From NCBI GenBank assembly GCA_964017185.1, contig OZ024869.1:6532501-6596500 (forward strand): a DNA stretch of 64,000 bases, read 5' to 3'. Shown here one piece after another: positions 5,814 through 56,955 of this stretch (positions within the stretch are counted from its first letter, which is position 1; each line of letters starts with the position of its first letter). This DNA is from Rugalucina vietnamica (Eukaryota; Mollusca; Bivalvia; Lucinida; Lucinidae). The notes under the pieces were generated by a model. That model was not told the DNA's origin. It saw nothing but the letters and a program-made list of their open reading frames with translations, and ran no database searches. Both the position numbers and the translations under genes were made by a program.

Positions 5814-6200
5814 TGTATAAACACTCGCATACATGCGTATATGTCTTTTCTGTTACCCAAGTGTCCCTTGAACAGCGTTTGTACATGTAGCAAAATGCAA
5901 TAAGCGAATACACGTGACTATAAAGAGAGCCAATCAAAGCATGCCTTCATCTGGGTCTGTTATTCACAAACTGAATACATGTACATGTATTACCGTATGA
6001 AGAAATGCTGCAAGTCGACAATGCACAAAGATCATAGGTTACTTCGTACTTGATTTGTTTAAAAGTTATGTGTTGTAGAGTAAGAGGACATAATTATGCC
6101 GCTCCAAACATTGACTCTTAGTTTACCAACCCAGGACTCCATTTCAAGACTCCACTCCATGACTCCAATTCATAGAATACACAGTGCATACAGTTATTTT

Positions 6201-6436
6201 TGAGCCGCATCGTGAGAAAAGCGGATTTTTGCCTAGGCGAAAACAAAGGCGCAGATCAGCTTCGCGGTAACCGCGAAGCTGATCAGCGCCTTTGTTTTCG
6301 CTACTCGGATAGTACAATTCCTCTTCTACTTAAATCCGAAATTTCAAGCTTCTAGATCTTTTCTGAGCTTGTACAGGCCGGTTTGTGTCGGACCTGGTCG
6401 GAAACCCCGAAGACCGGTTTTCTCGCGTCTCGGCTC
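6201..6436. mobile_element. MITE-1, about 236 bp, palindromic core
   Basis: Ends TGAGCCGCATCGTGAGAAAA and TTTTCTCGCGTCTCGGCTC are inverted repeats. The core GATCAGCTTCGCGGTAACC continues into its own complement, forming a perfect stem. The core is flanked by AAACAAAGGCG and CGCCTTTGTTT. This is the most abundant short element in the window. Confidence 0.8.
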
Positions 6437-6770
6437 TTTTGTAAAAAAGAAAAAGAAAACAATTATAACAAACTGGTGAATAATTGTTCTGTGCATAATT
6501 TTTGCAATTAGTTGCGACCTGTTTAAGCATAATGCAAAAAATAATGCGTAGAATATTCAGTGGACTATATTGCGCAGCCGATCAGCAAAACCACTTTCAA
6601 TTGAACGATGCCCTGCTTCGGAGTTCTAAAATTTCTTGAGTCTCTAGCAATATTCTCTGGTTGTATTGTCCGGGTTGTTTCTATCGTAAGCGAAACCGAA
6701 AAGACAGGTTTGCTCATGCCATTCTTAAATCTGAAAATGCCTCTTTAAAGTCTTTTACTGTTTGAATCTA

Positions 6771-8202
6771 TTAACGATATAAACCATTTACCACGTCCCA
6801 ATGATCCTTTATCCTCATTTTCCTCAAAGTTGACACAACCGATAATGTTACAGTAACAGATTCTATCAACGCTATCGGCGTCTGACATACAGACTCAGCT
6901 GACGTTTTACGCCTCGTTTGACGTCTTTTCTTACAAAACAAAGCCTTACAGTCTTGTCTAAAGGCGCGTCCGAAAAGGCTGTACAGTATAAAATTGACAC
7001 CGTGATTCAGATACCAAATAAAATTGAAGAAAGAATAAAGCCAAACAACAGCCTCGTCTCTGTTATTGACGGCACTGACGTAGCTCGGGACTAGACTGGA
7101 AATGGAATATGGTCCCACGGAGATACAATGAACCACACTGATGGCGATAACTCTCGCTGTCATTGACCTGGATGCGGAATTATCTCCTTGGTTTCCATGG
7201 TAACGGTCCATGATGTAGTTCCTGTTGCGACGTCGCATCGTTACTAACGCTGCGATGTTACACGTTGTAAGAATTATGAGAGGAACCGAGAAAATCAAAC
7301 CAAAGTCGAAAATCCAGAAACGCCATATTGTTTCGTACTTATACACAAATGAGCTGGAAGAAAATTGGCATGTTTCTAAAGATGACCTGTGTGTTCCGTT
7401 GAATTCTGATTGCCTCGTGGCCATCGCTGCATCCACCTTTTCACTAATAATGTCAAACATTCTGTCTGGGAAGCACGTGCTATTCATGTCAACAGGAACA
7501 ATATTTAGACCAACGGTCCACGGCAGTTCTAAGAGTAGACAAACCACAAAAAGACTACATATGGCATGTAAATGTTTCGACATTCGTTTGCCTTTCCATC
7601 GAACCGATCTGAACGGTTTACAAACGGCGATGGTTCGTTCGATCGTCACGAACACAATTAACCACGTTGACAATAGCGAGAAGAAAAATCCTGCTGGTCT
7701 CAACAGTTTACAGCAAACGACGTTCACGTCATATAAGCTGAACTTGAACAAATATTCGATGGCAAAAACCATTCCCGAGAAACACAAATTGCAGGAATCA
7801 GATATAGCTAGAGCAACAAGGTATGGTCCGCTCTGGTAGCCTCGACATCTTTCTCCTTTCGTCCAGATTAAAATGGACAGAATATTTCCTGCAAAACCAG
7901 TAATTATCGAGGTTATAGAACTTTTTATGTTCAACAACTTTGAGATTAAGAATTACCCTGCTCATAAATGTTAAATATCAACAATATTTTTAACATTTGG
8001 CAGCAGGAAAATTGATGTATTTGGTGATCTAAAGCTGAAATATTCATTCATTATACATATGGGCATTTTCAATATTTATGACCAATTCGATTTTCAGTTT
8101 CGGCTGAGTTGAGCATGAAAAAGTTTTACAACCTGCAAGTCCAGTAATTATTATAACACTCAAAACGATTCCACAGAGAATATTAAAGCCGTCTGTATTC
8201 AT
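6771..8202 (-). CDS. Class A (rhodopsin-like) G-protein-coupled receptor, two exons
   Basis: Exons are 8133-8202 and 6771-7888 on the minus strand, 1188 nt, encoding 395 aa. I chose the ATG at 8202. The long open frame has no ATG at its 5' end and begins with the intronic copy of a duplication. The protein has a short N-terminus and seven hydrophobic segments. TM1 is about residues 12-34 with GN at 24-25, and TM2 contains LALAISD. TM3 ends in ERT in place of DRY. TM4 has a PW pair. TM6 reads HCISVGPY without the usual Trp. TM7 is NHGVNFILYSLFG, a variant of NPxxY, followed by basic helix 8 with Cys. It should act in the plasma membrane as a ligand-gated GEF for G proteins, probably a peptide-type receptor, but the ligand is unknown. 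The splice joins GCA-G to GA-AAT within TM1. Confidence 0.85.
7889..8132 (-). mobile_element. MITE-G inside the receptor intron (intron boundaries given)
   Basis: The 244-bp intron holds a MITE of the family seen at 56722-56955. On the plus strand the left end is GAGGTTATAGAACTTTTTAT and the right end is AAAAAGTTTTACAACCT preceded by GGCTGAGTTGAGCATG. The flanks are near-identical 20-mers, CCTGCAAAACCAGTAATTAT at 7888-7907 and CCTGCAAGTCCAGTAATTAT at 8132-8151, with 18/20 matches. In sense the donor is GCAG|GTTGTA, within the MITE end. The acceptor TTTTGCAG lies in the duplicated coding sequence. CTATAAC, about 25 nt upstream of the AG, could serve as branch point. Confidence 0.75.
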
Positions 8203-8883
8203 TGTGACAAATTGCGGTGTGATGACCTAACTTGTGTTTTTATAAGAAAACATCTGGAAATGCTAGGACAGAGAAAAAGGTACACATTTTCGAAAGCAAA
8301 ATTCCCGAATAATTTCCAAATCGCTTACGTTTTATTCAATTGTCCAGTAGGAGAGTTCTTACAATATCTTTAGGATGCGGAAGAAATGACAGACAGTATA
8401 GACTGATCCGACAACCACATCCGACAAATACGGTTTACTAAAATGTACATTTTGTACCCAAGTATCAGATAATTTCTGTATCAAACCTAAGGCTCACAGA
8501 AACCCGAACTTTTGCAAATATGCAAATAAAGGTTAGTTTGCTATGAATACAATTTGTATATTTTCTACTCCCTAAATTTGAATTTGTCAGCCTCTTTAGT
8601 TCTGTTGTTGTACAAGCGGGTTTTCTATACCTTGGTCAAAATCCCGATACCGAGATGTTTTCTAGTGGCACAGATCAACGGATTTTTGTTCTTGGAAATA
8701 ATATTTTAGATGATTGTTTATCAATAAGAACACTTTATAATTGATAAATGTAAATAGATGACAGATGGCTGAAAAGGTTGTTGTTGAAAAACATTTTAAT
8801 CTATGGTCGAACGTACTCAGAAGTATAAAAAAGTGCGGACAAAGTAAAATGCGACGCTGCATGGGTAAAAACCATCAAGCCAT
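8203..8883. other. Upstream flank of receptor; no gene seen
   Basis: This AT-rich stretch should contain the 5' UTR and promoter of the minus-strand receptor. I see no clear TATA box, no long frame with family resemblance and no recognised repeat. Confidence 0.4.
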
Positions 8884-9157
8884 CAGGAAAACATGCCCGT
8901 GAAATGTATACCCCCTTATATCCCACATTTATATAGCAAAACAGGGGTATGCAGGGGTATACCTATTTTTCTTATTTTTTGCTCCAAAACATAGATTGTG
9001 GGTACTCGTTAGAACCGCCTCGCTGAGGCGGTTATAACGTGTACCGACAATCTATGTTTTGAGCAAAAATAAGAAAAATATCAAAATTTTTCTGATGAAA
9101 TTTTCAATTTTTGCTACTGAAAAAATTCTCTAATTGCATGGGCAAGTTTTCGTAATG
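8884..9157 (+). mobile_element. MITE-X, about 270 bp with long central hairpin
   Basis: The left end GGAAAACATGCCCGTGAAAT pairs imperfectly with the right end, CGAAAACTTGCCCATGCAAT on the other strand. The centre has CATAGATTGTGGGTACTCG, a GAACCGCCTCGCTGAGGCGG stem, and the complementary CCGACAATCTATG, giving a long hairpin. TATACCCC blocks fill the left third. The following 9158-9779 has no gene I can support. Confidence 0.75.
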
Positions 9158-56721: not shown

Positions 56722-56955
56722 GGCCCCAAGGTTATAAAAAAAATTTCATGCTCAACTCAGCTGAGACTAATATTTATCCTACATAAAAATGTTAAAATTG
56801 TTGGCATCTTTACATTTTTGTGCAGGATAAATTAGAGGCTTTGATGGTATAAACTTGAAATTTCAATTTATTTGGGCTACTTCGGCATTTATGACAAGTT
56901 CAAATATTATGCTCGGCTGAATTGAGTGTGAAAAAAGTTTTATAACCTCGGGGCC
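56722..56955. mobile_element. MITE-G, 234 bp (family found in the receptor intron)
   Basis: GGCCCCAAGGTTATAAAAAA at the left pairs with AAGTTTTATAACCTCGGGGCC at the right. The subterminal TCATGCTCAACTCAGCTGAG also pairs inward. It is 11 bp from the head of HINE-like copy 8. The interval 56956-57221 shows no gene. Confidence 0.8.

What the first reader, a model, noticed from the sequence alone, without database searches (positions are those of the whole stretch)
7888..8151. Receptor intron that looks created by a MITE insertion with duplicated splice-site sequence
The single 244-bp intron of the GPCR is almost exactly a MITE-G copy plus one copy of a 20-bp duplication (18/20 matches: 7888-7907 and 8132-8151). 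Both duplicates encode I-I-T-G-[L/F]-A-G of TM1. The upstream duplicate gives the exon end GCAG, and the MITE terminus gives the donor GTTGTA. The downstream duplicate, now intronic, gives the acceptor TTTTGCAG, with CTATAAC in the MITE end a possible branch point. Splicing restores the uninterrupted TM1. Known introners in algae work this way with short target duplications. A 20-bp duplication is unusual for a cut-and-paste MITE, so a second mechanism (tandem duplication at insertion) may be involved.
Basis: partly seen in the sequence, partly recalled or inferred. Interest (0 to 1): 0.88.

Follow-up and report, generated by a model that had tools for sequence, protein, structure and literature searches.

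The report
Receptor intron born from a transposon
In an animal receptor gene whose examined relatives have no intron at this spot, a short DNA transposon appears to have been patched into the code for the first membrane helix together with a 20-letter copy of the gene, so that the two copies now supply the cutting signals of a new intron.

Summary
A 20-bp direct repeat (18/20) brackets a diverged MITE inside a rhodopsin-type receptor gene on the minus strand: exon 1 8202-8133, intron 8132-7889, exon 2 7888-6771. Splicing would restore an uninterrupted TM1.

It looks like an intron gain. TM1 is unbroken in the DNA of the 27 paralogues examined, and in 26 of 28 protein hits, including the nearest full-length ones (82%, 79%). 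One 96% relative (or other haplotype) reads through the same MITE end.

It is not ordinary transposition. This MITE family targets CCWGG and duplicates 5 bp; two copies inside a repeat whose unbroken form is known fix that length. None of 105 other copies has a flank repeat above 15/20. The intron copy lacks both extreme tips and shares AGG with the target at the donor junction.

Best reading: an end-trimmed MITE was captured in break repair (or template switching), giving a ~17-bp duplication plus 3-bp AGG microhomology, which makes both splice sites in phase. The intronic repeat copy later gained two T's before the acceptor.

Splicing is inferred: no transcript was available, the donor is weak, and the only other carrier has a frameshift. 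Kind known; route and repeat length make it a new variant.

The parts
8133..8202 (-). Exon 1 of the receptor: ATG at 8202-8200, ends ...GGACTTGCAG; phase-1 junction
   Evidence: translation and ORFs; N terminus aligns with P0001, P0002, P0005, P0006
7889..8132 (-). Inferred intron, 244 bp, GTTGTA...TTTTGCAG
   Evidence: the junction restores TM1; CAG|GTTGTA has the strongest U1 pairing of the GTs in exon 1 plus intron, -7.2 kcal/mol against -14.0 for the consensus
6771..7888 (-). Exon 2: second half of TM1 to the stop, open throughout
   Evidence: ORF 6771-7952; Pfam 7tm_1 and Srw on the joined protein
8132..8151 (-). Upstream (exonic) repeat copy ATAATTACTGGACTTGCAGG; Leu codon judged ancestral
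   Evidence: the repeat finder; Leu also in P0001 and P0002
7888..7907 (-). Downstream (intronic) repeat copy ATAATTACTGGTTTTGCAGG; supplies the acceptor; A->T and C->T relative to the exonic copy
   Evidence: the repeat finder; Phe at this site in 0 of 26 protein hits with the motif, seen only in the read-through of P0004
7908..8134 (-). MITE body AGGTTGTAAAAC...CTATAACCTCG; both extreme tips missing; 44 of 220 sites and about 6 indels (counted by eye) from the family majority sequence
8132..8134 (-). AGG shared by the MITE tip (CGAGGTT) and the target (GCAGGAA): 3-bp microhomology that makes AG|GT
7912..7918 (-). CTATAAC, branch-point-like, 24 nt before the acceptor, in the MITE's terminal inverted repeat
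   Evidence: sequence; branch-point consensus is recalled
56729..56950 (-). Second copy of the same MITE family in the window
   Evidence: blastn 67%, E 3e-10; other genome copies 79-84% identical to it

Best explanation
The intron is a gain in a receptor family that otherwise lacks an intron here. SHOWN: it consists of one MITE copy minus its extreme tips, plus a second copy of 17-20 bp of the surrounding exon; the examined relatives lack it; the family normally makes a 5-bp CCWGG duplication. INFERRED: a ~17-20-nt staggered double-strand break in TM1 (or a replication template switch) was repaired with an end-trimmed MITE as filler. One junction closed on the shared AGG, and filling in the overhangs duplicated the exon stretch. 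Because AGG lies at both the MITE tip and the target, the event created CAG|GT (donor, T from the MITE) and GCAG|G (acceptor, from the duplicate) in the same phase, so removing exactly 244 nt leaves the protein unchanged. Later the intronic copy changed ACTT to TTTT, extending the pyrimidine run before the acceptor. The reading frame has been kept since, which implies that the intron is spliced.
For: Repeat and chance estimate. MITE identity and family size: 40 places scored of 1392 candidates; 1917 exact tips, 0 in the reversed control. Family target: the W of CCWGG is the same on both sides in 64 of 105 copies, complementary in 27, other in 14; expected agreement 0.43, seen 0.61, z 3.7. L023 and L077 sit inside a dispersed repeat whose unbroken form is at window 6381, which fixes the duplication at 5 bp. 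Best 20-mer flank match in other copies: at most 14/20 in 68 and 15/20 in 37, against 18/20 here. Absence in relatives: TM1 unbroken in DNA in 27 of 27 paralogues read, and in 26 of 28 protein hits. Presence in P0004, whose N terminus MSIKSSITSIIIGFAGN fits the MITE end plus the intronic repeat copy. Frame kept: 0 of 2000 simulated exon 2 sequences with 20% neutral change stay free of stops, and about 30 indels would be expected at the intron's rate, none being present.
Against: No transcript. The donor is weak at +3 to +6. No spliced protein of this species was among the 28 database hits. P0004, the only other carrier seen, has a frameshift near TM7: an assembly error or decay. A 17-20-nt stagger exceeds the 4-12 bp of the Daphnia exon repeats (PMC4202315 passages). 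Short direct repeats at intron ends are common in themselves: 26 of 100 random conserved Drosophila introns had repeats of 5 bp or more (PMC3296678 passages), and 213 of 213 introns had some in another survey (PMC11782384). A near-complete MITE body suggests that transposase freed it, which random filler does not explain. CTGG inside the repeat resembles the family's target, one and three bases off register. In 27 of 105 copies the W's differ as in an inverted repeat, so the 5-bp duplication is not clean in every copy. P0001 and P0002 are protein records whose DNA I could not read.
Confidence: 0.75

Rival explanations
1. Microhomology-mediated template switching (MMBIR or polymerase-theta type): copying ran through TTGCAGG, jumped at AGG into a MITE elsewhere, copied it, and returned 17-20 bp upstream. 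Same product without a staggered break. This is a variant inside the 0.75 of the best explanation.
For: AGG overlap at one junction; duplication plus templated insert in one step.
Against: A random switch would not be expected to copy the MITE almost exactly from tip to tip. No microhomology is visible at the return junction (sequence).
Confidence: 0.25
2. Canonical transposition of the MITE into CTGG within TM1, with later exchange of both element tips for target sequence by gap repair from the empty allele. The 20-bp repeat would then be a grown 5-bp duplication.
For: CTGG lies in the middle of both repeat copies and the family targets CCWGG. Transposase would explain the near-complete element.
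Against: Needs two separate tip replacements. CTGG is 6 nt from AGG where normal copies have 5, and 7 nt from CCTCG where they have 4. By my estimate a CWGG 4-mer falls in a 20-bp stretch by chance about 13% of the time.
Confidence: 0.12
3. The gene is a pseudogene broken by the MITE, and the apparent splice sites are coincidence. (This concerns splicing, so it overlaps with the readings on origin.)
For: Weak donor; frameshift in P0004; the unspliced ATG frame stops at codon 53.
Against: The insert has diverged 20% with about 6 indels while exon 2 has no stop or frameshift; 0 of 2000 neutral simulations survive. Both substitutions in the intronic copy are to T before the acceptor.
Confidence: 0.1
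4. The family, or an old subfamily of it, is an introner whose own transposition makes ~17-20-bp duplications.
For: The family's common tip reads GAG|GTTATA with TTATAAC at the other end, in both orientations, so it is pre-adapted to splicing with a flanking AG.
Against: 0 of 105 copies shows it; the copies nearest to the intron are ordinary members. Insertion at CCAGG with full tips would add 8 nt to the mRNA and break the frame (sequence reasoning). The 105 are a small, partly biased sample.
Confidence: 0.06
5. An ancient intron into which a MITE later jumped.
For: None found.
Against: The 27 paralogues read and the nearest homologues lack it; nothing of an older intron remains outside MITE plus repeat.
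Confidence: 0.02

Closest known systems
Introners (Gozashti et al. 2022, PMC9860276; passages seen)
   Same: A non-autonomous DNA element, in many families with inverted repeats, becomes an intron; one splice site can come from the element and the other from the duplicated target; mRNA length mostly unchanged
   Different: The passages speak of 3-9 bp duplications and of families with many introns; here one intron, 17-20 bp, tips lost, and the family's own 5-bp duplication absent
Daphnia neointrons by staggered break repair (PMC4202315; passages seen)
   Different: Their exon repeats are 4 to 12 bp; here 17-20 bp with a nearly whole MITE as filler
Transposon-born introns, such as the Doc intron of Drosophila (PMC3296678, PMC3443670; passages seen)
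   Same: A transposable element alone makes a new intron in an animal gene
   Different: Doc kept target duplications and added five residues; this one would add none and lacks the family's duplication
Direct repeats near intron borders (PMC11782384; abstract and part 1 of 2 of Results seen)
   Same: Direct repeats at both borders
   Different: Longest spliceosomal pairs in the table seen are 18 bp at 72 and 78%; here 20 bp at 90% with an identified insert

Membership tests
MITE family with tip NCCCGAGGTTATAAAAC | Short element (about 233 bp), terminal inverted repeats, many dispersed copies | tested here: met
   coding capacity not tested beyond the length
MITE family with tip NCCCGAGGTTATAAAAC | CCWGG 5-bp duplication and complete tips | tested here: not met
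   Family has it; the intron copy has neither
Intron gain by transposon insertion | Intron consists of a transposable element and is absent in relatives | tested here: met
Introner | Many sequence-similar introns in different genes | tested here: inconclusive
   Flanks of 31 copies joined, 186 frame readings, the 15 longest judged by eye only, no database search; genome search for CAGG tips did not complete
Introner | Intron bounded by the element's own target duplication | tested here: not met
   17-20 bp here against 5 bp in the family
[quoted passage not shown]
[quoted passage not shown]
   17-20 bp; range
Tandem genomic duplication at AGGT | Intron body is duplicated exon | tested here: not met
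   Only 17-20 of 244 bp are exon-derived
Functional spliceosomal intron | Spliced transcript | not testable with these tools
   No RNA data; GT-AG present, donor weak

The most novel reading that the evidence does not exclude
Precise intron birth in animals can go through repair rather than transposition: a MITE whose tip reads AGGTT is captured at a break in an exon that contains AGG. Microhomology at AGG plus the fill-in duplication automatically makes in-phase AG|GT and AG|G. With more than a thousand such tips in this genome, this could be a recurring source of new introns that leaves no standard target duplication and might be missed by introner screens.
Probability: 0.25. Interest if true: 0.78.

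Novelty: new variant of a known kind. Interest (0 to 1): 0.58.

Why it matters
Many gained introns have no traceable origin (187 in the Drosophila study, PMC3296678 passages). Here the insert, the ancestral exon, the duplication and the relatives without the intron can all be read from sequence. It gives a concrete test of whether break repair with transposon filler, rather than transposition itself, makes precise introns.

Tried and rejected
Ancient-intron reading: rejected by the paralogues read. Random repeat: rejected. 20-bp duplication as the family's habit: not seen in 105 copies. Other coding insertions of the MITE: flanks of 31 copies joined, no clear case by eye, not searched against any database. 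Whether P0001's N-terminal extension is translated 5' UTR, a sign of an unspliced record: only suggestive (180 of 5000 shuffles score as high); no sign for P0002 (4521 of 5000). Literature: no held paper contains introner, target site duplication, MITE and intron gain together; the listings of searches showed no MITE-born mollusc intron, but I saw titles and abstract starts only, and 40, 51, 59 and 60 list only part of their hits. Paralogue L085 has its own intron-like break in TM2; its only direct repeat is 12 bp (11/12) and not at the borders.

Rows dropped before counts: L044 (local duplicate of L043); L001-L008 (same places as the window and L009-L015); L124, L125, L140 (one end not found). 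The 68 copies include the window's second copy (as L048) and were the best matches to two queries, so they are biased. Of the 40 from contig 1, 39 are the first elements listed with an exact tip and L147 was chosen for its spacing; a few of the 37 used have one worn or rearranged end (such as L118, L131). Of 143 paralogue match rows only the 30 returned loci (self plus 27 distinct genes) were read.

Full report
Observation. The repeat finder returns one direct repeat in 7700-8400: 7888-7907 and 8132-8151, 18 of 20 identical, spacing 244. With window base composition the expected number of 18/20 matches over 961 registers is about 4e-6. On the minus strand, exon 1 (ATG 8202) reads MNTDGFNILCGIVLSVIIITGLAG, then ...GCAG|GTTGTA; exon 2 follows ...TTTTGCAG|GAAATATT and stays open to 6771. 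The joined protein is a 395-aa rhodopsin-type receptor (PF00001 8e-17, PF10324 3.8e-9). Without splicing, the ATG frame stops at codon 53.

The insert. It matches a second window copy (56729-56948, 67%) and a large family in the genome the window comes from (1.09 Gb). One search scored 40 of 1392 candidates: the window itself and 39 others at 73-76%. An exact 30-base tip occurs 1917 times, the reversed control 0 times. The intron copy differs from the majority sequence at 44 of 220 sites, with about six indels counted by eye; the 68 other copies differ by 3-15%. Those copies were picked by similarity, so this shows that the intron copy is old, not how old.

How the family normally inserts. In 105 copies with both ends (68, plus 37 of 40 from contig 1; L044 dropped), the usual ends are NCCCGAGG and CCTCGGGN, with CCWGG on both sides. 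The W agrees in 64 copies, is complementary in 27 and other in 14; expected agreement 0.43, seen 0.61, z 3.7. The test case is L023 and L077: they sit in a dispersed repeat whose unbroken form occurs in the window (exact at 6381), and the comparison gives a duplication of exactly CCWGG. One search listed three more: L013 and L113, similar but differing at W, and L018, a loose match. The best 20-mer flank match is 14 of 20 in the 68 and 15 of 20 in the 37; the 15 is at L115 and seems to be a neighbouring second MITE tip. So the intron copy is exceptional twice: it has a 17-20-bp repeat, and it lacks the last five bases of one tip and the last three of the other. AGG is common to tip and target at the donor side.

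Ancestry of the intron. Relatives in the same genome are 30-41% identical. The 27 distinct genes among the 30 returned loci all run through the intron position without a break in the DNA; in L085 this rests on a separate match to residues 1-76, and L101 is frameshifted after residue 39. The 113 lower-ranked match rows were not read. Of 28 database proteins, P0003 is the window's own downstream fragment, 26 read straight through TM1 (GxxGN motif), and P0004 does not: it begins MSIKSSITSIIIGFAGN, which fits the end of the MITE plus the intronic repeat copy in frame, with residues that match the window's own changes from the family sequence (P0004's DNA was not seen). P0003 and P0004 show that the collection holds unspliced readings, so the unbroken TM1 in P0001 (82%) and P0002 (79%) most likely reflects their DNA. 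Leu, not Phe, stands at the variable codon in P0001 and P0002, and Phe in none of the 26, so the exonic repeat copy is probably ancestral and the intronic copy changed A to T and C to T.

Is it spliced? Not shown. For: the frame outlived the insertion. Simulating 20% neutral change gives no stop-free exon 2 in 2000 trials, and about 30 indels would be expected at the intron's own rate, none being present. Against: the donor pairs with U1 at -7.2 kcal/mol against -14.0 for the consensus, though it is the best GT in exon 1 plus intron and in the top 1.9% of 2262 sampled GTs; P0004 has a frameshift near TM7; no spliced protein of this species was among the 28 hits.

Mechanism. The simplest account of the junctions is capture of a trimmed MITE at a staggered break, or an equivalent template switch, with AGG microhomology at one side. 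That the same AGG makes both splice sites in phase is read directly from the sequence. That repair was the route is inference. Daphnia exon repeats are 4-12 bp (PMC4202315, passages) and some known introner families have 3-9 bp duplications (PMC9860276, passages), so the length here is outside both. Short repeats at intron ends are common in themselves (PMC3296678 passages; PMC11782384 part of Results); the case rests on the length, the register with the MITE ends and the relatives.

Verdict. A well-resolved de novo intron of transposon origin; a new variant of a known kind. Confidence is high (about 0.9) that the intron derives from the MITE by gain, and moderate on the route: about 0.5 for break capture and 0.25 for template switching, together the 0.75 given above.

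Noticed in passing
L085:871-1521: A paralogue (C4:52579285) has a separate GT-AG intron-like break within TM2 (LSFS|DTINL) that, by eye, contains a dispersed repeat also present near window 6150-6450. Other paralogues read appear to lack it, so it may be another transposon-born intron; the search for its repeat copies did not complete.
   Followed up: partly
window 5638, 6381, 25480, 30368, 35227 and others: A dispersed repeat with GGTTTCCGACCWGGTCYGACACAAACCGG carries the palindrome GACCWGGTC, a target of the MITE; 18 window sites at up to 4 mismatches.
   Followed up: partly
window 8975-9060: Inverted repeat around AACCGCCTCGCTGAGGCGGTT with longer arms (AAAACATAGATTGT / ACAATCTATGTTTT), seen by eye: another MITE-like element beside the receptor gene.
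   Followed up: no
L009-L077: The family's majority tip reads GAG|GTTATA with TTATAAC at the other end, in both orientations: a latent donor and branch point in most copies.
   Followed up: partly
L027, L115: Adjacent copies of the MITE, with a second tip directly beside the first.
   Followed up: no
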